A stretch of DNA of 64,000 nucleotides, from positions 2,232,001 through 2,296,000 of the forward strand of contig NZ_CP114205.1 of NCBI RefSeq assembly GCF_027497495.1. Direction: 5' to 3'. Position numbers and translations under genes: made by a program. This document shows positions 11,598 through 24,258 of the stretch, piece after piece. The stretch's first letter is position 1. Each line of letters begins with the position of its first letter. This DNA comes from Streptomyces tubercidicus. GTDB lineage: Bacteria > Actinomycetota > Actinomycetes > Streptomycetales > Streptomycetaceae. The notes below the pieces were generated by a model. That model was not told the origin of the DNA. It did not search any database and worked only from the letters and a program-made list of their open reading frames with translations.

Positions 11598-12842
11598 ATG
11601 GCGAAGGCTGAGCGCATCGATGCTGTAGTGGTCGGCGGCGGCATCGCCGGATCGGCCCTGGCGGCAGCGCTGGCGGGGGACGGATATGAGGTTCTGCTTC
11701 TTGAGCGCCAGACCGTCTACCGCGACAAGGTCCGCGGGGAGGTGGTCAATTGCTGGGGTGTGGTCGAACTGCGGCGGCTCGGTCTGGAGCAGGCCCTGCT
11801 GGACGCCGGCGGCACCTTCGTGAACCGCTTCGTCGGCTTCGACGAGACGATCGACCCGGAAACCGCCCAAGAGAATGCGCTGCACCTGGACGAGATGCTC
11901 CCGGAAATCCCGGGAGTTCTGGATGTGGGGCACCCGGAAGCCTGCGAAGCGCTGGCCACCGCCGCCGAGAACGCCGGCGCGACCGTCGTTCGCGGCGTAG
12001 GTGAAGTGAACGTGACCGGCGGGCCGAACCCGAGCGTCCGTTACGAACTCGACGACATGGAATACGAAGTCCCGTGCCGCATTGTTGTCGGCGCCGACGG
12101 CAGGATGTCGACCGTACGCCGCCAGCTGGACATCGCACTCGCTCAGACCTCGCCGAATTCATTGGGCGGCGGCATGCTTGTCGAAGACCTGCATGACTGG
12201 CCGGTCAATGTCACCTCTATCGGCACCGAAGGCGAGCTGCTCTACTTCGTTTTCCCGCGTGACGGCGCCCGGGCACGGCTCTATATTCTGCACGGCGTCG
12301 ATCAGAAGGGGCGCTTTTCCGGTCCCACCCGGCAGGCGGACTTCCTGAAGGCATTTCAGTTCCGATGCATACCCGGCAGTGAGATGTTTGCCTCGGCCAC
12401 GCCCTCCCAGTCCTGCGCGTTCTACCCGATGAACGACGCCTCGGCGGCCACCCCCATCGCCCCGGGCGCGGTGCTGGTCGGAGACGCCGCCGGGTGGAGC
12501 GACCCGGTCGTCGGGCAGGGGCTGTCCATTGCGCTGCGGGATGCCCGCTCGGTCCGGGAGGCGCTGCGGTCCCACAGCTCCTGGACGCCGGAGGCGTTCG
12601 AGGCGTACGCCGCGGAGCGCGCGGTACGCATGCGCCGCATCCGTATCTCCGGGTCGGTGCGCACCACGATGCAGATGACGTTCACCCCCGACGGCAGGGC
12701 CCGCCGCAAGGCCTACGCCAAGGCGATACAGGCCGATCCGATTCTGGCCGGCTCGCGGATGGCGACTTTCCAGGGACCGGACCAGGTCCCCGCCGAGTCC
12801 TTCGACCCGGGCGTCATCAAGCGCCTTTTCGCCCTCCAGTAG
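11598..12842 (+). CDS. FAD-dependent monooxygenase, PHBH-like
   Basis: 414-residue flavoprotein of the p-hydroxybenzoate hydroxylase/geranylgeranyl reductase fold. The N-terminal FAD motif is VVVGGGIAGSALAAAL (residues 10-25), RGE follows near residue 47, and the second FAD motif is GAVLVGDAAGWSDPVVGQG near residue 295. No membrane segments. It is the first gene of the operon, preceded by GGAGGAATCC ahead of ATG 11598. In this context it could oxidise the hydrazine intermediate or a late scaffold, but the substrate cannot be deduced. A saturase or dehydrogenase role is equally possible for this fold. Confidence 0.75.
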   Translation: MAKAERIDAVVVGGGIAGSALAAALAGDGYEVLLLERQTVYRDKVRGEVVNCWGVVELRRLGLEQALLDAGGTFVNRFVGFDETIDPETAQENALHLDEMLPEIPGVLDVGHPEACEALATAAENAGATVVRGVGEVNVTGGPNPSVRYELDDMEYEVPCRIVVGADGRMSTVRRQLDIALAQTSPNSLGGGMLVEDLHDWPVNVTSIGTEGELLYFVFPRDGARARLYILHGVDQKGRFSGPTRQADFLKAFQFRCIPGSEMFASATPSQSCAFYPMNDASAATPIAPGAVLVGDAAGWSDPVVGQGLSIALRDARSVREALRSHSSWTPEAFEAYAAERAVRMRRIRISGSVRTTMQMTFTPDGRARRKAYAKAIQADPILAGSRMATFQGPDQVPAESFDPGVIKRLFALQ

Positions 12843-12935
12843 ACGACGGCGCCCCACGGGTGCCGCTCGATCGAGCAGACCAGGTACGCCGCCGGCGCAG
12901 GCGCGTCGGCGACGACATGTCAACGAGGAGATTCC

Positions 12936-13292
12936 ATGTACGTGAAAACCGCTGCGGACGACGAGCAGATCCGCAAGAACGGCTGCGACCTGCGTCAGCT
13001 GTACCCGTGGGAGAACGTCGTCGTACCGCCGTGGAACAGCACGCTGTGTTCCATCCGGCCGTCCGAGTCGAGCGCCCCGCACGGCCACGCCACGGACGAG
13101 ACGTTCATCTTCACCGGCGGAAAGGGGCATGTGCGGATCGGCGAGGAGGAGCGCGCGGTCATCCCCGGGGACGTCATCTACATCCCGCACGGGACCCATC
13201 ACATCGTCACCAACACCAGTGACTCCGACCCGCTGACGTTCGTCAGCATCTACTGGCTCCAGCCTTCGGAGCAGGGCGAGGAGCAGCGATGA
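12936..13292 (+). CDS. cupin, N-N bond-forming partner candidate
   Basis: 118-residue single-domain cupin. Metal-binding residues are visible in the two conserved boxes: HGHATDETF (His, His, Glu) near residues 49-57 and IPHGTHH near 85-91. Its stop overlaps the start of the MetRS-like gene (ATGA), so the two proteins are made together. In the hydrazine-forming enzymes of other actinomycetes (s56-p1, triacsin and related pathways) a cupin domain is fused to a MetRS-like domain and carries out the rearrangement that makes the N-N bond. Here the same order is kept but as two polypeptides. The family assignment is secure; the function is inferred from context. Confidence 0.8.
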   Translation: MYVKTAADDEQIRKNGCDLRQLYPWENVVVPPWNSTLCSIRPSESSAPHGHATDETFIFTGGKGHVRIGEEERAVIPGDVIYIPHGTHHIVTNTSDSDPLTFVSIYWLQPSEQGEEQR

Positions 13293-14884
13293 CCGCCCCG
13301 CACCGGAAGCAGCGCATCAACGTCACCTTCTCCCCGCCCACCCCCAACGGGGACCTGCACCTGGGCCACTTGGCCGGACCGGTGCTGGGCAGCGACGTCT
13401 GTGCTCGCTCGCAGAAGGTCCTCGGCCACGACGTGGCGTTCTCGACCAGCACGGACGACAACCAGACCTACGTGGTCACCACCGCCGAACGCATGGGCAC
13501 CGGGCCCGAGGCACTGATCCAGCACGCGTTCAAGAGCGTCACCACCACCCTGGAGCGGGCCGGAGTCCAGGTCGATCTCTTCGAGCGGCCCGACGCGGCG
13601 TACACGGAGTTCGTCGAGGGCTTCTTCACCCACCTGTGGCGGCACGGCGCCTTCGACCAGCGGGAGGTGGAGCTTCCCTACGACGCCGAGGCCGGGGAGT
13701 ACCGGGCCGAGGCCTTCGTCACGGGCCGCTGCCCCGCCTGCCTGGCTCACGCCCGTGCCGGGGTGTGCGAGGCCTGCGGCGGCTACAACCTTCCCGCCGC
13801 CCTGCTGCCGAGCGGCACCGCCGCCGCCCTGCCGCGGCGCACGGCATCGATCTGGGTCCTGGACCTGGAGCGCTACCGCGCGCAGATCACCGACTGGTAC
13901 CGGGCCTCCGACGTGCGGCTCCGCCCCGACCTGGCCCGGGTCGTCTCCGACTCCCTCGCCACGCGCCTGCCCTACATCCCCATCACCTACCCCAGTACGT
14001 GGGGGATCGCGGTGGGCTGGGACGGCCCCGACGCCCCCGCCCAGGCCATCAACGCCTGGCCCGAGATCTACGTCGGGCATCTGTACTGGCTGGCTCAGGC
14101 CCGCAAGGCGGACCTGGGCGACTGCGACGAGCTGGTGCAGTTCATCGGTATCGACAACGGGTTCTACAACGCCTTCGTCTATGTGACGCTCTCGTTGCTG
14201 GCGGCCGAGCACGGCCTGCCGGTCGCCCTGCCCAAGACGCGCACCCTCACCAACCAGTACTACCTCCTGGAGGGCCGCAAGTTCTCCACCAGCAAGGGGG
14301 ATGTCCGCTGGGCCGGGGAGTATCTGGACAGCGTCGGCCGGGACCGGGCGCGCTTCGTGCTCGCCTTGACCAGCCCCGAGCTCCAGCAGTCGGAGTTCAG
14401 CGAGGAGATCGCCCTCTCGACGATCAACCGGCGCTTCGACGAGCCGATTTCCGCCCTCACCCGGGCACTGAACACCACCTTGGCCGGCCGCAGCGCCGAT
14501 ACCCCGCCGTCCTCCTGGTGGGCGGCCGCCCTGGCGGCCTCCCGGCAGCGGTTCGAGGAGGCCTACCGGCTGGAGACCTTCAGCATCCGCAAGGCCGCCG
14601 AGGCGCTGGCGCTGCACCTGGAGGTGCTCGCGCTGCGCAGCGAGCAGATCGACCTCGATGACCCGGCCGATGTCTCCGGCGCGCTGCTGTTCCTCTGGTC
14701 GCTGCGCACCCTCGCCTGGCCGGTCACCCCGGACCTCTCCGAGCAGGTGACCCAGTCCTTCAGCGCCCCCTCCGTCGTCGAGCAGGCCCCTTTGCTGGCC
14801 GAGCTCACCGAGCCACCGGCCGGCGCCTTCCGCGGCCTGAATACCCGACGTCCTGACCACGGCGCCCTGACCACGCCGTCCTGA
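13289..14884 (+). CDS. methionyl-tRNA-synthetase-like amino-acid-activating enzyme
   Basis: 531-residue class I synthetase of MetRS type. The HIGH-equivalent is HLGH (residues 24-27) in TPNGDLHLGHLAGP. The KMSKS-equivalent is KFSTSKG near residue 330. A Cys zinc knuckle lies between (CPAC and CEACGGY, about 148-165). ATP chemistry therefore looks intact. Coupled to the upstream cupin by a 4-bp overlap and followed by panD and an N-hydroxylase, it is most likely the adenylating half of an N-N ligase that esterifies an amino acid onto N6-hydroxylysine, not a tRNA-charging enzyme. A spare, drug-resistant MetRS is the alternative, but the neighbours speak against it. Confidence 0.82.
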   Translation: MTAPHRKQRINVTFSPPTPNGDLHLGHLAGPVLGSDVCARSQKVLGHDVAFSTSTDDNQTYVVTTAERMGTGPEALIQHAFKSVTTTLERAGVQVDLFERPDAAYTEFVEGFFTHLWRHGAFDQREVELPYDAEAGEYRAEAFVTGRCPACLAHARAGVCEACGGYNLPAALLPSGTAAALPRRTASIWVLDLERYRAQITDWYRASDVRLRPDLARVVSDSLATRLPYIPITYPSTWGIAVGWDGPDAPAQAINAWPEIYVGHLYWLAQARKADLGDCDELVQFIGIDNGFYNAFVYVTLSLLAAEHGLPVALPKTRTLTNQYYLLEGRKFSTSKGDVRWAGEYLDSVGRDRARFVLALTSPELQQSEFSEEIALSTINRRFDEPISALTRALNTTLAGRSADTPPSSWWAAALAASRQRFEEAYRLETFSIRKAAEALALHLEVLALRSEQIDLDDPADVSGALLFLWSLRTLAWPVTPDLSEQVTQSFSAPSVVEQAPLLAELTEPPAGAFRGLNTRRPDHGALTTPS

Positions 14885-14963
14885 CGTCACCGCCGGTACG
14901 ACGCCCGCATCGCGTACCGGCCGGCACCCCGCACCGAAACCGACACCACGAAGGAAGATCCTC

Positions 14964-15332
14964 ATGCTCCGCACGTTCATGAACTCGAAGATCCACCGCG
15001 CCTCCATCACCGACTGCAACCTCAACTACGTCGGCTCGATCACCGTCTCCCCCGAGCTGCTGGAGGCCGCGGGGATCGGCGTCCACGAGCTGGTGCACGT
15101 GGTCAACGTCAACAACGGCGCGCGGTTCGAGACCTACACCATCCTGGGCGCCCCGCACGCCAACGAGGTGATCGTCAACGGTGCCGCCGCACGCCTGGTG
15201 GAGCCCAAAGACAAGGTCATCATCATCAGCTATGCGCAGCTGACGGAGACCGAGCTCGCCGAGCACAAGTCCCGCGTGGTCCACGTGGACGAAGAGAACC
15301 GGATCACCAGCACCGAGCTCCAGAGCCACTGA
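14964..15332 (+). CDS. panD: aspartate 1-decarboxylase proenzyme (PanD)
   Basis: 122-residue pyruvoyl enzyme making beta-alanine and CO2 from L-aspartate. The self-processing site is the canonical Gly24-Ser25 in NYVGSITV; Lys9 (NSKIHRA) and Tyr58 (FETYTILG) are present, so it should be active. ATG 14964 follows GAAGGAAG. PanD normally serves pantothenate synthesis with panC and panB, and neither is here. Its position inside the operon suggests that beta-alanine feeds the pathway, most simply as the second nitrogen donor for the N-N ligase. Confidence 0.93.
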   Translation: MLRTFMNSKIHRASITDCNLNYVGSITVSPELLEAAGIGVHELVHVVNVNNGARFETYTILGAPHANEVIVNGAAARLVEPKDKVIIISYAQLTETELAEHKSRVVHVDEENRITSTELQSH

Positions 15333-15400
15333 ACCGGCGTGGACACCCGTCAACGACCTGCATCTTCGCGTCCCTGTATGCCCGAAGAGGACCATGACCA

Positions 15401-16735
15401 GTGACGAATCAACAGATTCATCCCGTACTCGGGGTGGGGTTCGGACCCGCGAACCTCTCCCTCGCGGTAACACTTGAAGAACTCGGCCATGGCGGCACCG
15501 CACACTTCATCGAGCGGGCCGACGGCTTCCAATGGCAGGAGCAGCAGCTGTTGCCCGGCGCGGACATCCAGAACAACCCGTTCCGCGACCTGGTGATGCA
15601 GCGTAATCAGTACAGCCGCTACACCTTCGTCAACTACCTTGCCGAGCAGGGTCAGTTGACCGACTACCTGCACCTGAACGCAAAGTTCCCGCTGCGGCGG
15701 GAGTACGCCGGTTACCTCGGCTGGGCGGCCGAAGCTTTCCGCGGCTCGGTGGACTACGGACAGTCCGCCACCGGGCTGTCCCTGATCACGGGGGATGACG
15801 GCGGCGAGCTGTTCGCGGTCCACACCGCGAGCGGCCGCCGCTACCTGGCAGAGACCGTCGTCATGGGCACCGGCCGCTCCCCGCGCATCCCCTACCCCTT
15901 CCAGGGCTTCCTGGGGCCGGACGTCTTCCACTCGACGCAGTATCTGTCCGCCATCGAGGGCCTGCGCGACCGGCGGATCAGGGTTGCCGTGGTGGGCGCC
16001 AGCCAGAGTTCCATCGAGATCATCCTCGATCTGCTGCGCCGCCCCAACGTCGAGCAGGTCACCTCCCTCCACCGCGGTATCGGATTCCGGCTCAAGGACA
16101 CCAGTCCCTACAGCCGGCAGGTGTTCCTCCCGCAATTCGTCGACTACTTCCACCCGTTGCCCAGCGAGACCAAGCAACGTATGCGGGAAGAACTCCGGTC
16201 GATCAACTACGCGGCATGCGACCAGGACGTCATCGACCAGCTCGTCACTGTGCAGCGCGAGTACGAGCTGGCCGGGTCCGACCGCCTGCGGATGGTGCCG
16301 TTCTCCGAGACGGCCGAGATCACCCGGGCGCCCGGCGGCGAGCACCGGCTGCGGGTACGCGATGTCAACCACGCCACGGAACAGACCCTCGACGCCGACG
16401 TGATCATTCTGGGCACGGGGTTCCGCGACTTCGGCACCGGGCCGAACGACGAGCCCTACCACCCCCTGCTGGAGGGCATCGCCCACCGGTTCCCCCTCGA
16501 CCGGGTCGGCGTTCCGGTCGTCGCACGGGACTACTCGATCGAGCTCACCGCCCAGGAGCACACGCCCACCCCGCGGCGGGTGTACCTCAACGGGCTGTGC
16601 GAGGCGAGTCACGGCATGGGAGACGCCGGAGCGCTGGCCATGCTCTCGGCCCGTTCCTCCGACATCGCCGAATCCCTGGTGGGCAAGGGCGAACGGACGG
16701 ACGAACGGCCCCTGGTCGCCGGGGCGCTGCGGTGA
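15401..16735 (+). CDS. lysine/ornithine N-hydroxylase (SidA/IucD family)
   Basis: 444-residue flavin N-monooxygenase that hydroxylates the side-chain amine of lysine or ornithine using NADPH and O2. Motifs: FAD site GVGFGPANLSLA (residues 11-22), QWQEQQLLPGADIQ substrate/FAD loop, NADPH site VVGASQSSIEIILDLL near 195-210, and ILGTGFRDF near 340. Full length for the family. The GTG start at 15401 is chosen because translation from it gives the family N-terminus; an ATG seven bases upstream is out of frame. With the cupin/MetRS pair it would supply N6-hydroxylysine. No siderophore synthetase gene is nearby. Confidence 0.9.
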   Translation: MTNQQIHPVLGVGFGPANLSLAVTLEELGHGGTAHFIERADGFQWQEQQLLPGADIQNNPFRDLVMQRNQYSRYTFVNYLAEQGQLTDYLHLNAKFPLRREYAGYLGWAAEAFRGSVDYGQSATGLSLITGDDGGELFAVHTASGRRYLAETVVMGTGRSPRIPYPFQGFLGPDVFHSTQYLSAIEGLRDRRIRVAVVGASQSSIEIILDLLRRPNVEQVTSLHRGIGFRLKDTSPYSRQVFLPQFVDYFHPLPSETKQRMREELRSINYAACDQDVIDQLVTVQREYELAGSDRLRMVPFSETAEITRAPGGEHRLRVRDVNHATEQTLDADVIILGTGFRDFGTGPNDEPYHPLLEGIAHRFPLDRVGVPVVARDYSIELTAQEHTPTPRRVYLNGLCEASHGMGDAGALAMLSARSSDIAESLVGKGERTDERPLVAGALR

Positions 16736-17814
16736 CGCAGTCCGTCGCCCGCGCGGATGTCGCCGTCGTCGGCGGCGGCATCATCGGCCTGGCCACTGCC
16801 GAACGGCTCACCGCGCAGCGACTGTCGGTGGTCCTGGTGGACGACTCGGGCATCGCCGGAGGAGCCACCGGGTCCTCCGGCGGGCTCATCCGCGCCTTCG
16901 ACCCCGACCAGGACCACGCGTCCTGGGCGGCACAGGGCCTGGAGCTCTACCTCCGGCGTGGCTGGCGGGGCACCTGGCCGCAGGTGCACGAGCACGGCAG
17001 CCTGACCCTCCTGCGCACCGCGGACCTGACCCGGCGCAGCGCGCAGACCAGCGCGCTGCGCGCGGCCGGCCATGACCTCGCGCTGCTGTCCGCGGACGAA
17101 ATACGCACCCGCTTTCCCGGGCTCGACGTACCCGACGACCTGGCGGGGGTGTACGAACCACGGGGCGGCTGGGTCCCGGCCCGGCAAGTGGCCCATGCGC
17201 TGCTGTGCGACGCGGGCCCCGGCCTGCGGGTACTGCGTGCACGGGCCACCGCCGTACGCACCGCCGACTCCCGCGTGACCGGCCTGGCCACCGATGCCGG
17301 CTCCGTACAGGCCCGCGCCGTCCTGCTCGCCGCCGGCGCCGGCAGCAGCCCGCTGGCCGCCTCTGTAGGAGTGCCCCTGCCCCTGCGCACCCGGTCGGTG
17401 GCCTATGGCCTCTTCGACCCGGGCATCAGCGCACCGAACGCCGCACTGCCGACCATCGTCGACGTCACCACCGGGGCGTGGGTGCGCAGATGGGATACGC
17501 ACCCGACGCTGCTCGCCGGTGTGCGCTCCAGTGCCACCGACGTACCGGAGACCGTGCGCACGGGCATCTCGGCGCCGGAGGAAGAGCGTATCCGCGGGGT
17601 CCTGCGCCGGCGTCTCCCGTGCCTGGCAGACGCCCCCGCGGTGGGCGGACGCACCGCCTACGACGCGCAGGCCCTTGCCGGAGGCGGCGCGGTCACCGCC
17701 TGGCCCGAACCGCGCGGTCTGGTCACCGCCACCGGCTGGAACGGCGGCGGGTTCAAGCTCGCCCCCGCCGTCGGCGCCCACACGGCCGCCCGGCTCCAAG
17801 AGGTGCTGACATGA
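16732..17814 (+). CDS. DAO-type FAD oxidase, hydrazino-acid release candidate
   Basis: 360-residue FAD-dependent oxidoreductase of the D-amino-acid oxidase/glycine oxidase family. Dinucleotide motif VAVVGGGIIGLATAERL (residues 10-26), then GGATGSSGGLIR; the C-terminal FAD loop is TATGWNGGGFKLAPAVG. GTG 16732 overlaps the stop of the N-hydroxylase gene (GTGA). In the s56-p1 pathway an FAD oxidase of this type cleaves the N-N-linked lysine adduct and frees the hydrazino acid. The same order of genes here supports that role by analogy only. Confidence 0.83.
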   Translation: MTQSVARADVAVVGGGIIGLATAERLTAQRLSVVLVDDSGIAGGATGSSGGLIRAFDPDQDHASWAAQGLELYLRRGWRGTWPQVHEHGSLTLLRTADLTRRSAQTSALRAAGHDLALLSADEIRTRFPGLDVPDDLAGVYEPRGGWVPARQVAHALLCDAGPGLRVLRARATAVRTADSRVTGLATDAGSVQARAVLLAAGAGSSPLAASVGVPLPLRTRSVAYGLFDPGISAPNAALPTIVDVTTGAWVRRWDTHPTLLAGVRSSATDVPETVRTGISAPEEERIRGVLRRRLPCLADAPAVGGRTAYDAQALAGGGAVTAWPEPRGLVTATGWNGGGFKLAPAVGAHTAARLQEVLT

Positions 17815-19142
17815 CGACCTGGCATCTGAACCCTACCGACGAGATGCTGCACGCCGCGGAAGAGACCCTGGGTTCGTCCCGCGTGGTGCAGGTGCTGTGG
17901 AAGTTCCCGCAGCCCGTCTCCCACAGCGCGCTGGAGGCCGAGTGGCACCGGCTGAACCAGAGCCGGCTCAGCCGCCACGCCGTCCCTGGCCGCCTGCCGG
18001 TGGCGCGGCGCAGATGGGTCCGCGCCACCAACGAGGAACCCCTGCACACCGACCATCAGATGCTGACCGGAGCCACCGCACCGCGGTGGATCGACGAGCA
18101 GGTACGCGCCCCGATGTCCGTCGGCTCCACCGCCCTGTGGCGACTGGCGTCCGCTCCCTACGGGGACGGCAGTCTCGTCTCCCTCACCGTGCCGCACTTC
18201 CGCTGTGACGGCATGGGCATCTTCCATGCCCTCGCCACCCGCGGCATCGCTCCGTACGCACACCCCACCCCGGCGCACGAGGACGCCGCCGGTGACCTCG
18301 GTGAGGCCCTCGGTCAGGTGATCCGGGCCTGCACCGGCACCGCACGCTGGGGACTGAACCTGCTCGCCGGCCCGGGTAAGCGCGCCCAACTCGGCGCCGC
18401 CCTCGGCAACACCGCCGCCAGGCCCGCTGCGGCGGCCTCCGCGCCCCGCTTCTTCTCCTCGGCCCTCTTCGACGTACCGGCCGCGGACTGGGAACGGCAG
18501 GCCCGTGCCCACGGCGGCACGGCCAACAGCCTCTTCATCGAGATCGCCGCCAATCTGATCCGCCGCAACGTGCCGCGTGACCAGCAGGCCACGGTCGATG
18601 TCGGCATCCCCTTGAGCATGCGCGCACCGGAGGGCGACGGGCGCGCCAACGCCCTGGTCGTGCTGCCGCTGACCGTCCCCGGCGGCAGCCGGCCGCACCT
18701 CGACCTGCGCCACACCCGGACGGCGACCAGGGAACTGCTCCGGACCGCGGGCGAACACAGCGGCACGCTCGTCCCCGAACCGCTGTGGCATCTGCTGCCG
18801 GCCCGCTGGGCCAACCGGCTCAAGGCCCCGGGGGCTCAGCAGACCGACGTGGTCGCCTCGAATTTCGGAATGGCCCCGGAGCCGGTGGCGTGCTTCGGCG
18901 GCGGCCTCGCCGAGAGCGTCGGCCTGCGGACCATGAACGTCCCCGGGCTCGTCCCGGAAAAGGCCCGCTTGCGCGCCTCCCTGTGCCTGCTGCGGGTCGG
19001 CGAGCGCATGACCGTGACCGTCACCGGCATCCCCGATCACTTCGGAGACGCCGCCGACCTCGGCAGCCGCGTCACCGAGGAACTCGCCGCCTGGGGACTG
19101 GCCGGGCGGCAGTGGTGGACCCCGATCAGCCAACCGGCATGA
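17811..19142 (+). CDS. condensation/acyltransferase-like protein
   Basis: 443-residue protein of the chloramphenicol acetyltransferase-like fold shared by NRPS condensation domains and WS/DGAT acyltransferases. The active-site block reads PHFRCDGMG near residue 125: the catalytic second His and the Asp-Gly are kept, while the first His of HHxxxDG is Pro. A later block VVASNFGMAPEPV resembles the DFG-type latch region. ATG 17811 overlaps the oxidase stop (ATGA). It would acylate an amine or hydrazine with an acyl-CoA or carrier-bound acid, but no carrier protein or NRPS lies in the window, so acyl-CoA is the likelier donor. Confidence 0.65.
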   Translation: MTTWHLNPTDEMLHAAEETLGSSRVVQVLWKFPQPVSHSALEAEWHRLNQSRLSRHAVPGRLPVARRRWVRATNEEPLHTDHQMLTGATAPRWIDEQVRAPMSVGSTALWRLASAPYGDGSLVSLTVPHFRCDGMGIFHALATRGIAPYAHPTPAHEDAAGDLGEALGQVIRACTGTARWGLNLLAGPGKRAQLGAALGNTAARPAAAASAPRFFSSALFDVPAADWERQARAHGGTANSLFIEIAANLIRRNVPRDQQATVDVGIPLSMRAPEGDGRANALVVLPLTVPGGSRPHLDLRHTRTATRELLRTAGEHSGTLVPEPLWHLLPARWANRLKAPGAQQTDVVASNFGMAPEPVACFGGGLAESVGLRTMNVPGLVPEKARLRASLCLLRVGERMTVTVTGIPDHFGDAADLGSRVTEELAAWGLAGRQWWTPISQPA

Positions 19143-19155
19143 GGAGAACCGAACG

Positions 19156-19977
19156 ATGACCGCGCCACACCCCACCGCCGCAGTCCTGCCCGACCGGTGG
19201 TTCCGCACCCGTCCCGACTCGTCCGTGCACGACCGGCCCCGGCTGCTCGCCCGGTCCTTGATCGACGCGGCCGATCTGGACGATCGCATCGCCTTCTACG
19301 AGCGGCTGCTCGCCGTACCCGCCGATCTCCGTATGCCCATCCCCGACTTCGGCGGCCTGGAGCTGGCCGCCGTCGGAAACCTGCTGCTGATCGCCAGCGT
19401 CCGTCCGTTCACCCCGATCCAGCGGCGGACCGCTTACTCCCTCATCGTGCCGTCACTGACCGCACAGCTGGAGACCGTGCGCGCCGCAGGGGGCACCGTC
19501 CTCGAACCGCCCGAGGACATCCTGCCCGGCGCCCGGGCGCGCGTGCGCTACCCCGACGACGCCGTGGCGGAGCTGGTAGAACACCGCCCGCAGCCCGGCG
19601 AGACGCCCGCACCGTCGCGCACCGCGCCGCCCGACGGCGGCTCGCGGCCCGCACCGCGGCTTCTGGTGCGGCGTCAAGTGCCCCGGGCCGACTTCCACGA
19701 CGCCGTCGCCCTCTACGAGAAGGTCCTGGAGACCTCCGCCCGGCCCCACGCCGGCCCGAGCGGCCATGACCTGGACGTCGCGGTCATCGGGAACCTGCTC
19801 CTCGTCGGCAAGGACGCCCGCGACCCGGCTGCCGACGCGGCCACCGCCATCGCGCTGCCGGCCCCCCACCCGCGGCAGCTCGTGGAGGCGTCCGCGCCCA
19901 CCGGCTCAAGGGCCCTCATACCGCTGCCCGACGGGGGCCTGGCGGAGGTGTGGGACAGCACGGCCCTGGGTCTCTGA
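19156..19977 (+). CDS. tandem VOC (glyoxalase/bleomycin-resistance fold) protein
   Basis: 273-residue protein with two half-repeats of the VOC fold. The first spans about residues 28-145 ([19 protein letters not shown], then VGNLLLIA); the second about 165-270 ([16 protein letters not shown], then IGNLLLVG). The repeated xGNLLLxx strand shows internal duplication. Strong GAGGAG precedes ATG 19156. VOC proteins are metal-dependent lyases, isomerases and dioxygenases or drug-binding resistance proteins. As the last gene of the operon it could be either a tailoring enzyme or self-protection; the sequence does not decide. Confidence 0.75.
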
Positions 19978-19978
19978 C

Positions 19979-20206
19979 GGCGACCGGTTCACGTCCGAGA
20001 CGGCATCATTCGGCAACGACCTGTCGACGCTGCCCAACTTCCCCGCCGAGATCCGGGCCCCCGCCGGGACCCTGCCGGGTGACGCACCGAATGTGCTGCT
20101 GGGCGCGGCCCGTATCGCACTGACCTACCGCACCCCCGTCTTCCTGCTCTCCGACGGCTATCTGGCCAACGGCTCGGAGCCGTGGCGGATCCCCGACGTC
20201 GAGGAA
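19979..20206 (+). pseudogene. decayed fragment of 2-oxoglutarate:ferredoxin oxidoreductase alpha subunit
   Basis: Immediately after the VOC stop, one open frame contains three joined pieces of the alpha subunit (KorA type): [20 protein letters not shown] with [12 protein letters not shown] (19979-20080), DAPNVLL (20081-20101), and [20 protein letters not shown] with [10 protein letters not shown] (20102-20206). In the intact protein the first two lie near the N-terminus and the third several hundred residues later, so two internal deletions have removed most of the gene. There is no start codon of its own. Homology is clear from memory of the family; it is certainly not functional. Confidence 0.8.
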
Positions 20207-20290
20207 CGGCCCGATCGTGCTGGCCGGCAACGACACCTGGACGGTCGTCGGCTGACCGAACGGATTCGCCCGTTCCGCGGGTGCCTCCGG

Positions 20291-21091
20291 TCAGCGGTCG
20301 GCGACCAGCAGAGTCTGCAGGATGCGGCCGCAGTCTCCGTCCGTGTCGTCGAGCTGCCCGAGCGCCAGGCCGGATCCCTGGGGGCTGGCCGCAGTCGCGG
20401 ACCGCATGCAGAACCATTCACCGACCGGCTCTCGGTGCAACGCCAGCGTGACGTCGGTATTGATGACGAGCCCCTGCTGATGGTCGAGTTCGAAGGCCAC
20501 GGCCCAGCTGCTGTCCGCCAGGGTGAGGGCGCGCGTCAGAGGAGTGTCTTCCTCGCCGGCTACCAGCGGGATCCGCTGCCGAGCCCAGGCCGTGCCCGGG
20601 CCGCGCGTGTCAAATCCTTTTCCTGGCTCGAACCGCCACTCCATTGCCGAGATGTAGCCGTCCATGTGGGCACCCGCCATCGTGTGCGCGGGCTGCGGGT
20701 GAGGCAGCTGCGGCGGGTCGGAAACCGGCCGCAGACGGGGGGTGGCGGCAGGGCTGCCGGCCACTCTCCAGGCCCGTGCCATCAGCACAGTCCTGCCGTC
20801 CGAGGTCAGCTCGCCCTCCAACAGCTCGGTGCGTCCGCCCGAGCGGAGGGTGCGGACCTCGGCCTGAAGGTCGCCTACGGGAACCGGGCGCGGCAGCTCC
20901 AGCGTGATGCGGGCGATGCGGAACCCCTCTCGGGCCGCGTGCCGCTCGAACGCCCGTCCCATCAGCGCAGAAGGAGGGCCGCCATGCTGCGCCTTCGGGC
21001 TCCACGGCCCCGCAGTGGAGGGGCTGCTCGCGTATCGGCCACCCCCCAGGGGCCGATAGAAGGATTCATGCGGTGAAGCAATTTCCGCCAT
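20291..21091 (-). CDS. double-hotdog acyl-CoA thioesterase-like protein
   Basis: 266-residue protein resembling TesB-type/4HBT_3 thioesterases. The N-terminal half carries the family pattern [15 protein letters not shown] followed by [18 protein letters not shown]. The second hotdog includes [11 protein letters not shown] and [19 protein letters not shown]. It would hydrolyse an acyl thioester, perhaps the donor of the acyltransferase-like enzyme or a substrate unrelated to it. It is transcribed leftward, divergent from the GlxA/AraC regulator with a 141-bp shared promoter gap, and convergent to the N-N operon. Confidence 0.78.
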
Positions 21092-21232: not shown

Positions 21233-22246
21233 ATGGGGAATACCGTAGCTTTAGCACTCGCCGAGCATGTGTCACTCATCGAATTAGCGGCTCCGTGTGA
21301 GATTTTTGGTGTCGACAGATCTCCACTCACGAATTCTTGGTATGACTTCATCATCTGTGGTTCCGAAAATGCAAGAGTCGGCGGGTGGTTCCGGCCGGAC
21401 GGTTATCGGAGCCTGGATGAATTGGTGACGGCCCACACCGTTATCGTCCCGGGTTCACCCAATACCCCCGGGAAACAGCCCGCCGACCTGGTCGAAGCGG
21501 TACGCGCAGCACACGACGCCGGCGCCCGGATCGTCTCCGTCTGCGCCGGGGCGTTCGTACTGGCCGCCGCCGGGCTTCTGGATGGCCGGCGCGCCACCAC
21601 TCATTGGCTCTATGCCGACCTGCTGGCCGCGCGATACCCGCACGTCAACGTGGACCCGGACGTGCTTTACGTCGATGACGGCGACATTCTCACTTCTGCC
21701 GGGAAACTGGCGGGTATCGATATGTGTCTCCACTTGGTCCGACTCGACTACGGCGCAGCGGTCGCCAATGATTTGGCGCGACGACTCATCATGCCGCCGC
21801 TCCGCGACGGCGATCAGGCTCAATTCATCACCCCCCTTGCTACGCAAGGGATAGATCACGCCCTGGCGGAACTGCTGCCTTGGGTGAAAGCGCACCTGGA
21901 CGAGCCGCTGACCGTGGTTGATTTGGCGCGGCGGGTCAATATGAGTACGCGCACCCTCAGCCGGCACTTCAATGCGGTTACCGGGAAAACGCCGCTGCAG
22001 TGGTTGCTCACGCAGCGGATTCAGCAAGCACACGAGCTCCTTGAGACCTCCACCTACAGCATCGAGCAGATCGCTGCGCAGACGGGAATGGGAACGGCGG
22101 CCACGCTGCGCCGCCATTTCAGCCGGGCGGTGGGGATGCCGCCGGACGCCTACCGGCGCGCCTTCCGGGCCGGGCAGGTTCCGGTGAAGTTCAGGCCGGT
22201 GGCACAGCAGGAGAGCCGCGGGGAAGCCTTGCCGCAAGCGTCCTGA
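21233..22246 (+). CDS. GlxA/AraC-family transcriptional regulator with two TTA codons
   Basis: 337-residue regulator with an N-terminal DJ-1/PfpI-like domain (nucleophile-elbow motif VSVCAGAFVLAAAG near residue 100) and a C-terminal AraC double helix-turn-helix (LTVVDLARRVNMSTRTLSRH and IEQIAAQTGMGTAATLRRHF). This is the architecture of AdpA. Codons 7 (21251-21253) and 18 (21284-21286) are TTA, the rare leucine codon read by the bldA tRNA, so translation should be delayed until development. Downstream of the N-N operon, it is a plausible pathway activator. Confidence 0.88.
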   Translation: MGNTVALALAEHVSLIELAAPCEIFGVDRSPLTNSWYDFIICGSENARVGGWFRPDGYRSLDELVTAHTVIVPGSPNTPGKQPADLVEAVRAAHDAGARIVSVCAGAFVLAAAGLLDGRRATTHWLYADLLAARYPHVNVDPDVLYVDDGDILTSAGKLAGIDMCLHLVRLDYGAAVANDLARRLIMPPLRDGDQAQFITPLATQGIDHALAELLPWVKAHLDEPLTVVDLARRVNMSTRTLSRHFNAVTGKTPLQWLLTQRIQQAHELLETSTYSIEQIAAQTGMGTAATLRRHFSRAVGMPPDAYRRAFRAGQVPVKFRPVAQQESRGEALPQAS

Positions 22247-22977: not shown

Positions 22978-24258
22978 TCAGTGCGCGTGCGCCTGGCGGG
23001 TGCCGCGGTACGCGATGACTACGAGCGTGATCACGGCCAGCACGGCGGCGCCGACGAGGATGATGGGCGGCGAAAGGAACCCGGTGCACAGGGTGATCAC
23101 GTAGGGGGCGAGGAAACCCAGGTATGCCAGGGTCCAGAAGTACGAGGTCAACCGAGCCAGCCGGTGCGCCGGCGCAAGAGCGGCGACCTCGGTGAGGCCG
23201 TAAGCGACGCACAGGCCGTAGCCCGCACCGAGCACCATCGACGCGATCAGAGCGACCACGGGCTGGGCCTGCGCCGCGGCGAGCGCGGCGATCAGCATGC
23301 CGAGGGCGACGGCGGCCAGTCCGATGGCACCGGTGGCGATGCGGTGCCGGGCAGCCAGCGAACGTGCGAAGGGCGCCACAATGATGCCGGCGCCGGGGGT
23401 GACAGCGGTGATCACACCGGCGTAAACGGTCTGCCAGCCCTCCAGGTCGGCGTCGACCAGGCCGGGCAGCGTAGCGAAGGCCACTGCCGGAGCGACGAAT
23501 ACCCACGGGGCCACGGGGGCGACCAGCCGGCGGAACTCGGCCGCCGAGGCGCGCTGCTCCCGCCGTGCACCGGGCGCGGGAGCCGCCGAGGCCTTGCCGG
23601 GGTGAGCCGGAGAGGATTCAGGGGCGCGGGCGGCGCTGAGCGCCGCGATGGCGGAGAGAATCAGGTGCGGGATGTAGGCGGTGACCATGGGGTGCGGCGC
23701 CCACTGGGCGATGAGGGAGGCGGCCAGGCCGCCGGTCGCGAAGCCGGCGGACAGAAACAGACCGGAACGACGGGCCGCCACCCCCGGGTTGGGGGCGGTG
23801 CCGTGCGGGGGCGAGGACAGCTCCTTGATCCACGCGCTGCCCGCCGACAGCAGGGCCCCCGCGCCGATCCCGGTCAGGAAACGCCCGGGCCACAAGAAGG
23901 CGGAGGCTGCGGGGCCGATCATCAGCAGACAGGTGGCCAGGGCCGAACTGCCCAACGCGAGAAAGACGATGGGCCGACGGCCCCGCCGGTCGGCGAGCGG
24001 CCCGCCCAGCAACAGCCCGGGGATGAGTCCCAGCACATAGATGCCGAACAGAGCGGTCGTGGTGGCCGTGGTCAGGCCCAGCTCGCTGCGGTAGGAACCC
24101 AACAGGGCGGAGAACTGGTTGGCGCTCCAGCCGGAGGCGGCCATCACCCAGCCCGCGCTCAGCCAGTACCGGGGTGCGGGCACGGGTGTGCCCGAGCCCA
24201 TCGGTGGGGTGGGAGGGAACGCTGCGGGTGTAGTGGTCGGGGCGGCGTGCTTGCTCAT
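22978..24258 (-). CDS. MFS transporter, exporter candidate
   Basis: 426-residue major facilitator with about 12 hydrophobic segments. The inter-helix motif A is GGPLADRRGRRP, and motif C-like GIGAGALLSAGSAW follows. A central cytoplasmic loop (EQRASAAEFRRL region) separates the two halves. The Pro/Thr-rich N-terminus precedes the first helix. It diverges from a LysR regulator with a palindrome between them, a classic regulated-exporter pair. Export of the cluster product is likely but the substrate is not visible. Confidence 0.85.
   Translation of the reverse strand: MSKHAAPTTTPAAFPPTPPMGSGTPVPAPRYWLSAGWVMAASGWSANQFSALLGSYRSELGLTTATTTALFGIYVLGLIPGLLLGGPLADRRGRRPIVFLALGSSALATCLLMIGPAASAFLWPGRFLTGIGAGALLSAGSAWIKELSSPPHGTAPNPGVAARRSGLFLSAGFATGGLAASLIAQWAPHPMVTAYIPHLILSAIAALSAARAPESSPAHPGKASAAPAPGARREQRASAAEFRRLVAPVAPWVFVAPAVAFATLPGLVDADLEGWQTVYAGVITAVTPGAGIIVAPFARSLAARHRIATGAIGLAAVALGMLIAALAAAQAQPVVALIASMVLGAGYGLCVAYGLTEVAALAPAHRLARLTSYFWTLAYLGFLAPYVITLCTGFLSPPIILVGAAVLAVITLVVIAYRGTRQAHAH

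What the first reader, a model, noticed from the sequence alone, without database searches (positions are those of the whole stretch)
11598..19977. Putative N-N bond-forming (hydrazine) biosynthetic operon without NRPS or PKS
Eight co-directional genes, several overlapping by four bases, include an N-hydroxylase of the lysine/ornithine type, a cupin, a MetRS-like enzyme with both ATP motifs, and a DAO-type FAD oxidase. In the s56-p1 pathway the same four functions make N6-hydroxylysine, join it to an amino acid, rearrange to an N-N bond and release a hydrazino acid. The tailoring genes here (flavin monooxygenase, condensation-like protein, tandem VOC) and the lack of any carrier protein suggest a small molecule not explained by known hydrazine clusters I can name.
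Basis: partly seen in the sequence, partly recalled or inferred. Interest (0 to 1): 0.88.

Follow-up and report, generated by a model that had tools for sequence, protein, structure and literature searches.

The report
Hydrazine-making operon with aspartate decarboxylase
A Streptomyces chromosome carries an eight-gene operon, conserved in many actinomycetes, that very probably joins two nitrogen atoms to build a hydrazine, and it always includes a gene for making beta-alanine, which no hydrazine pathway that I could find described in the literature contains.

Summary
The operon is real at 11598-19977, and the hydrazine reading holds for its core. The cupin has the exact Zn/catalytic spacing of the proven N-N enzymes PyrN and RHS1. 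The MetRS-like protein is excluded from tRNA-charging MetRS (100/100), and the N-hydroxylase is outside the host's siderophore-type clades. No carrier protein lies in the window. All eight genes recur in the same order in 19 of 21 other loci (two lack the flavin monooxygenase) from six actinomycete genera. This clade has its own amino-acid pocket. Other N-hydroxylase/cupin/MetRS cassettes lack close homologues of PanD, acyltransferase, VOC and monooxygenase. The 'condensation-like' protein is a stand-alone acyltransferase of condensation-domain fold. The operon lies in an island absent from relatives.

Best model: PanD makes beta-alanine, which the MetRS-like/cupin pair couples to N6-hydroxylysine; the DAO flavoenzyme releases 3-hydrazinopropionate, which is then acylated. 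The N-N core is about 0.92 likely, the beta-alanine step only about 0.4. Glycine as partner, or PanD as self-protection, remain open. New variant of a known kind; product unknown.

The parts
11598..12842 (+). Class A FAD monooxygenase (FAD_binding_3; UbiH/PHBH/rifampin-monooxygenase-like), probable tailoring oxidase
   Evidence: Pfam PF01494 1.5e-27; PDB relatives rifampin and squalene monooxygenases; present in 19 of 21 sister operons
12936..13292 (+). Stand-alone Zn-cupin, predicted N-N bond-forming rearrangement enzyme
   Evidence: Invariant H49, H51, E55, H89 in 18 sequences, same spacing as PyrN H50/H52/E56/H90 and RHS1 D63/H65/E69/H103 (PMC8664883); profile hits plu4264 2e-18 and RHS1/5UQP 1.7e-4
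13289..14884 (+). MetRS-like ligase (HLGH...KFSTS), predicted to adenylate an amino acid and esterify it onto N6-hydroxylysine
   Evidence: Only 26% identical to the host's own MetRS; 100/100 clade apart from tRNA-charging MetRS; clade-specific pocket
14964..15332 (+). Pyruvoyl-type aspartate 1-decarboxylase (PanD), predicted to make beta-alanine; the only panD in the genome
   Evidence: TIGR00223 above cut-off; K9, Y22, G24-S25, R54, T57, Y58, N72 kept (catalytic roles from general knowledge); single copy in genome; present in 21 of 21 sister operons
15401..16735 (+). L-lysine/L-ornithine N-hydroxylase, predicted N6-hydroxylation of lysine
   Evidence: PF13434 3e-77; best PDB hits are lysine N6-monooxygenases 5cqf and MbtG; outside the host's other N-hydroxylase clades
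16732..17814 (+). DAO/sarcosine-oxidase-type flavoenzyme, predicted oxidative cleavage that frees the hydrazino acid; GTG start overlaps the N-hydroxylase stop
   Evidence: PF01266 4e-41; PDB relatives monomeric sarcosine oxidase and NikD; start codon read from sequence
17811..19142 (+). Stand-alone acyltransferase of NRPS-condensation/WS-DGAT fold, invariant HxxxDG (H129, D133, G134) and ASNFG
   Evidence: Alignment of 20; AlphaFold pLDDT 83, pTM 0.86; Foldseek best hits CDA synthetase C domain 2e-16, WS/DGAT 6chj TM 0.57
19156..19977 (+). Tandem VOC-fold protein; no N-terminal metal-ligand His seen, so possibly a binding/protection protein rather than a metalloenzyme
   Evidence: PF18029; profile hits PA4183 8aid 5e-19 and 3r6a 3e-16; alignment
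19976..20252 (+). Scar of a deleted korA-korB pair (KorA residues 28-63 and 387-428, then the last 12 residues of KorB)
   Evidence: intact korAB in this place in 7 of 21 sister operons
20291..21091 (-). Acyl-CoA thioesterase-like protein (4HBT_3), found with 6 sister operons; probable cluster member
21233..22246 (+). FtrA-like regulator (DJ-1/PfpI + AraC HTH), found with 7 sister operons; probable cluster regulator
22978..24258 (-). MFS transporter, homologues beside 3 sister operons; probable exporter

Best explanation
A horizontally acquired operon for a small hydrazine-type metabolite. Inferred steps: (1) the N-hydroxylase turns L-lysine into N6-hydroxylysine; (2) PanD turns L-aspartate into beta-alanine; (3) the MetRS-like ligase adenylates that amino acid and passes it to the hydroxylamine oxygen, giving an unstable ester; (4) the Zn-cupin, with Glu55 as catalytic residue, rearranges the ester so that the two nitrogens join; (5) the DAO flavoenzyme oxidises the lysine C6-N bond and frees 3-hydrazinopropionate plus aminoadipate semialdehyde; (6) the stand-alone HxxxDG acyltransferase acylates the hydrazine, probably from an acyl-CoA because no carrier protein is present, and the flavin monooxygenase tailors it; VOC, the MFS transporter and the thioesterase serve protection, export or hydrolysis. 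Shown here by sequence: gene content, conserved order, catalytic residues, family membership. Inferred from proven relatives (PyrN/RHS1, Spb38-40): steps 1, 3-5. Pure inference: beta-alanine as the partner, and step 6. Probabilities: an N-N bond is made, 0.92; PanD's beta-alanine enters the product, 0.65; beta-alanine is the partner that receives the N-N bond, 0.4.
For: Cupin metal/catalytic residues and spacing identical to PyrN and RHS1 and invariant in 18 operons. MetRS-like clade excluded from tRNA-charging MetRS at 100/100. N-hydroxylase best matches lysine N6-hydroxylases. PanD in 21 of 21 sister loci, always between MetRS-like and N-hydroxylase genes, a distinct group with intact active site. 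Of 388 Streptomyces genomes 357 hold a PanD; the other operon carriers in that set have two or more copies, the host only the operon's, so the operon copy is plausibly a working decarboxylase. The operon MetRS-like proteins share a pocket (T18, D56, W257, I260, Y261, H264, Y293, N294, Y298; one exception, F for Y261) unlike 17 other cassettes and sit on a long stem of 1.34 changes per site, which fits a different amino-acid substrate. No homologue of the operon's PanD, acyltransferase, VOC or monooxygenase within about 9 kb of those 17 cassettes at 1e-6.
Against: All characterised synthetases of this family use alpha-amino acids (Gly, Ala, Ser, Glu, Tyr; PMC11705231). A beta-alanyl ester would need a six-membered rather than five-membered path to N-N bonding. 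Asp52 of E. coli MetRS (binds the alpha-amine; from memory) is kept as D56. The DAO type is also the type that frees hydrazinoacetate after glycine coupling. No product, transcript or activity was seen.
Confidence: 0.45

Rival explanations
1. Glycine route: the synthetase couples glycine, the DAO frees hydrazinoacetate as in s56-p1, triacsin and azaserine, and PanD's beta-alanine is joined later, for example as the amine or acyl partner of the HxxxDG acyltransferase.
For: DAO-type release enzymes go with hydrazinoacetate pathways (PMC11705231; PMC13274452). Bulky I260/Y261 in place of Ala/Pro of MetRS would suit a very small amino acid. Glycine is the commonest partner reported.
Against: The window DAO has no BLAST hit at 1e-6 to the DAO genes beside other cassettes. 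panD sits inside the N-N gene trio, not with the tailoring genes. No ligase or carrier for activating beta-alanine is present other than the MetRS-like protein.
Confidence: 0.27
2. PanD is self-protection: hydrazines attack the pyruvoyl cofactor, so the operon carries a spare or resistant PanD; it is not a pathway enzyme. The repeatedly recruited korAB pair may be a second spared target.
For: PanD and korAB are both copies of primary-metabolism genes. The other operon carriers keep a separate PanD as well. korAB copies in operons group with the same genome's housekeeping korA where compared. Pyruvoyl enzymes are classically sensitive to carbonyl reagents (general knowledge).
Against: PanD is embedded between two N-N genes in all 21 loci, and its catalytic residues are unchanged. 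korAB is in only 7 of 21.
Confidence: 0.17
3. No N-N bond: the N-hydroxylase serves a hydroxamate or siderophore-like product and the MetRS-like protein makes an amide with hydroxylysine.
For: PyrN without its cupin gives the N-acyl hydroxylysine amide (PMC8664883). Lysine N-hydroxylases are common in siderophore routes.
Against: A cupin with the full catalytic set is kept in every operon and overlaps or abuts the MetRS-like gene in nearly all of them. The N-hydroxylase groups away from the host's other N-hydroxylases.
Confidence: 0.05

Closest known systems
PyrN (pyrazomycin) and the split RHS1 cupin/MetRS pair of Rhodococcus jostii RHA1 (PMC8664883)
   Same: MetRS-like ligase plus Zn-cupin with the same H/D-x-H-x3-E...H residues; adjacent lysine N-hydroxylase; RHS1 is stand-alone like this cupin
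   Different: Those use glutamate and a saccharopine-dehydrogenase-like release enzyme; here a DAO flavoenzyme and PanD, no saccharopine dehydrogenase
Spb38-Spb39-Spb40 (s56-p1), and the triacsin, azaserine and N-nitroglycine hydrazinoacetate cassettes
   Same: N-hydroxylase, DAO flavoenzyme, cupin and MetRS-like functions
   Different: Those are cupin-MetRS fusion enzymes, several with NRPS/PKS/carrier tailoring; [quoted passage not shown]
Afn8/Afn9/Afn18 of albofungin
   Same: Separate MetRS-like and cupin proteins plus lysine N-hydroxylase
   Different: Part of a large aromatic polyketide cluster with an asparagine-synthase-like hydrazine transferase
Apy9-Apy11 of the actinopyridazinones
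   Same: Cupin/MetRS hydrazine synthetase with cognate N-hydroxylase and release enzyme
   Different: Uses N4-hydroxy-diaminobutyrate and alanine; no PanD mentioned in the text read
Plu4264 cupin of Photorhabdus luminescens (PDB 4mv2/4q29)
   Same: Closest solved structure to this cupin by sequence (2e-18)
   Different: Its function was not established in anything read here

Membership tests
Cupin/MetRS-like hydrazine synthetase | MetRS-like catalytic domain with both ATP motifs, apart from tRNA-charging MetRS in phylogeny | tested here: met
   HLGH and KFSTS; 100/100 separation; 26% identity to own MetRS
Cupin/MetRS-like hydrazine synthetase | Zn-cupin with H/D-x-H-x3-E and distal H, invariant catalytic Glu | tested here: met
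   H49/H51/E55/H89 invariant in 18 sequences; spacing equals PyrN and RHS1
Cupin/MetRS-like hydrazine synthetase | Cognate lysine/ornithine-type N-hydroxylase in the same operon | tested here: met
Cupin/MetRS-like hydrazine synthetase | ATP-dependent, tRNA-independent N-N bond formation | not testable with these tools
   Needs an enzyme assay
Spb/hydrazinoacetate (glycine) sub-type | DAO flavoenzyme beside the synthetase | tested here: met
   PF01266, all 21 loci
Spb/hydrazinoacetate (glycine) sub-type | Glycine as amino-acid substrate | tested here: inconclusive
   Pocket differs from other cassettes and is bulky; no reference sequence of a glycine enzyme at hand
Spb/hydrazinoacetate (glycine) sub-type | Cupin and MetRS fused in one protein | tested here: not met
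   Two genes overlapping by 4 bases
Azaserine/N-nitroglycine/dob hydrazone pathway | Carrier protein that holds the hydrazinoacetyl group | tested here: not met
   No PF00550 domain in the window
PyrN/formycin (glutamate) sub-type | Saccharopine-dehydrogenase-like release enzyme | tested here: not met
   None among the operon's families
Aspartate 1-decarboxylase (PanD) | Above family cut-off with self-processing G-S and catalytic residues | tested here: met
   TIGR00223 132.6 vs 106 bits; residues kept
NRPS condensation domain | Fold of the family and HHxxxDG motif | tested here: inconclusive
   Fold met; second His and DG invariant, first His replaced by Pro; stand-alone without carrier

The most novel reading that the evidence does not exclude
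A hydrazine synthetase that couples a beta-amino acid (beta-alanine, made in the operon by its own PanD) to N6-hydroxylysine, yielding 3-hydrazinopropionate, which could close to pyrazolidinone/pyrazole chemistry: a new substrate class for N-N bond formation and a new family of carrier-free hydrazine natural products.
Probability: 0.38. Interest if true: 0.8.

Novelty: new variant of a known kind. Interest (0 to 1): 0.62.

Why it matters
N-N bond-forming enzymes are few and wanted as biocatalysts. A conserved sub-family with its own pocket, an embedded beta-alanine supply and a compact carrier-free pathway points to an undescribed hydrazine metabolite made in several actinomycete families, and gives a directly testable claim about extending the enzyme class to beta-amino acids.

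Tried and rejected
tRNA-charging MetRS: rejected by tree and identity. Siderophore N-hydroxylase: the host's other N-hydroxylases form separate clades. A cupin-MetRS fusion seemed to appear in L037 and L046, but it was a read-through artefact of my script; stops lie between the genes. 'PanD is merely an extra housekeeping copy': it is a separate group and the only panD of this genome. Literature searches for hydrazine plus aspartate decarboxylase, beta-alanine or hydrazinopropionate found no described cluster. Papers read on genomic islands, deep-sea Streptomyces and hydrazidomycin: not this cluster. A profile search of the acyltransferase against PDB sequences gave nothing; only fold comparison placed it. 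The eight-residue specificity code of Matsuda et al. 2024 (ChemBioChem, cited in PMC11705231) was not found in the library, so substrate could not be read from it.
Full report
Observation. The eight genes lie at the stated coordinates, all on the plus strand, with three four-base overlaps. Order: flavin monooxygenase, cupin, MetRS-like, aspartate 1-decarboxylase (PanD), lysine/ornithine-type N-hydroxylase, DAO flavoenzyme, acyltransferase of condensation-domain fold, tandem VOC protein. No carrier-protein domain lies in the window.

Is it an N-N pathway? The cupin keeps H49, H51, E55 and H89 in all 18 aligned operons. PyrN has H50, H52, E56, H90 and RHS1 D63, H65, E69, H103, where the Glu is essential for N-N bonding (PMC8664883); the spacing is identical. 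Its profile finds plu4264 and RHS1 among solved structures. The MetRS-like protein is 26% identical to the genome's own MetRS and sits with other N-hydroxylase/cupin cassettes, split from 13 tRNA-charging MetRS at 100/100. The N-hydroxylase best matches lysine N6-monooxygenases, is outside the clades of the host's other N-hydroxylases, and groups, weakly (92/65), with cassette N-hydroxylases.

Conservation. A search of 394 Streptomyces genomes found 28 with a MetRS-like relative at 1e-60, eight of them (own included) in the 73-100% identical class; a scan of GTDB contigs added more. In 21 loci with a close relative (some may be the same genome met through both collections) the cupin-MetRS-PanD-N-hydroxylase-DAO-acyltransferase-VOC order is kept without exception, and the monooxygenase is present in 19. 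The records are labelled Streptomyces, Kitasatospora, Streptantibioticus, Kibdelosporangium, Actinomadura and Nocardia (one more, labelled Microtetraspora, groups inside Streptomyces and matches genome G076). Seventeen more distant cassettes (35-45% identical MetRS-like) have the N-hydroxylase and MetRS-like genes, in nearly all cases a recognisable cupin, and no detectable PanD, acyltransferase, VOC or monooxygenase of this kind within about 9 kb; neighbours of some are a DAO flavoenzyme, of others ATP-grasp ligases.

PanD. It has the processing site and catalytic residues of aspartate 1-decarboxylase but is a distinct group with many fixed differences from 30 other Streptomyces PanDs, which are 48-58% identical to it. 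357 of 388 Streptomyces genomes have a PanD, usually one; the other carriers of the operon in that set have two or more, while this genome has only the operon copy. That is consistent with a working decarboxylase, though not proof, since 31 of 388 genomes have no PanD at all.

Substrate of the ligase. Mapped on E. coli MetRS (mapping shifted by one for the removed Met, pocket residues from general knowledge), the operon clade shares T18, D56, W257, I260, Y261, H264, Y293, N294 and Y298 with a single exception, and differs from all 17 other cassettes. This argues for one shared substrate, different from theirs. With panD in the middle of the N-N genes, beta-alanine is the candidate I commit to, at about 0.4. 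All characterised members use alpha-amino acids (PMC11705231), so this would be new chemistry; glycine is the chief rival.

Tailoring. The acyltransferase has invariant HxxxDG and ASNFG motifs, a confident model (pLDDT 83, pTM 0.86) and the fold of NRPS condensation domains and WS/DGAT. With no carrier protein it most likely uses acyl-CoA. Distant relatives occur in other families of the class, in one genome as four tandem copies. The VOC protein resembles PA4183. In seven sister operons korA and korB follow VOC, with a ferredoxin gene in some. 2-Oxoglutarate:ferredoxin oxidoreductase makes succinyl-CoA (general knowledge), and azaserine-type pathways succinylate the hydrazine (PMC13274452, PMC13061610), so a succinyl-CoA supply to the acyltransferase is a possible, untested role. 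In the window korAB is reduced to a scar.

Island. In four relatives the genes that flank the operon here (adenosine deaminase on one side, an aldehyde dehydrogenase and an aminotransferase on the other) lie about 2.6-6.3 kb apart in the same order, against about 24 kb here, and no operon gene is found between them. The operon with its thioesterase, FtrA-like regulator and MFS transporter is thus part of an inserted block. In eleven sister loci the operon is preceded by an AfsA-type gamma-butyrolactone synthase, most with TetR-family regulators and a short-chain dehydrogenase, which marks it as a regulated specialised-metabolite cluster.

Novelty. The gene trio is a known kind (PMC8664883). 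What I did not find described is the PanD-bearing, carrier-free sub-family. The library holds open-licence papers only, so a description elsewhere cannot be excluded. No product is known and nothing here was tested in the laboratory.

Noticed in passing
window 19976-20252: Two fragments of korA and the last 12 codons of korB survive directly after the VOC gene: the scar of a deletion of the korAB pair that sister operons still carry.
   Followed up: yes
L039:16690-19597, L041, L044, L046, L050, L052, L054: Second, operon-linked korA-korB copies; where compared in one genome (G308, G780) the operon korA groups with that genome's housekeeping korA, which suggests repeated recruitment or gene conversion.
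   Followed up: partly
L044:5361-6599 and 10 other sister loci: A conserved protein of mostly about 410 aa with a DDE_5 (transposase-type) domain sits between the gamma-butyrolactone genes and the operon in eleven loci, an unusually constant neighbour for a transposase.
   Followed up: no
L035:2939-5481 and similar positions in ten other loci: AfsA homologue, in most with TetR regulators and a short-chain dehydrogenase beside the operon: likely gamma-butyrolactone control of the cluster; not seen beside the window's copy.
   Followed up: partly
L034, L035, L043, L048, L049, L051: A cytochrome P450 gene accompanies the operon in six loci, often beside the 4HBT_3 thioesterase; not seen in the window's copy.
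   Followed up: no
PDB 9l8v, 9vq4, 9vqj, 9vr2: Solved structures titled 'methionine-tRNA ligase' are the closest sequence relatives in the PDB of the operon's MetRS-like protein (7.5e-52) and may themselves be non-translational ligases.
   Followed up: no
G769:C74:74698-80352: Four tandem paralogues of the operon's acyltransferase family in another actinomycete genome, function unknown.
   Followed up: no
window 10968-33772: The operon is part of an island between genes that lie only about 2.6-6.3 kb apart in relatives.
   Followed up: yes
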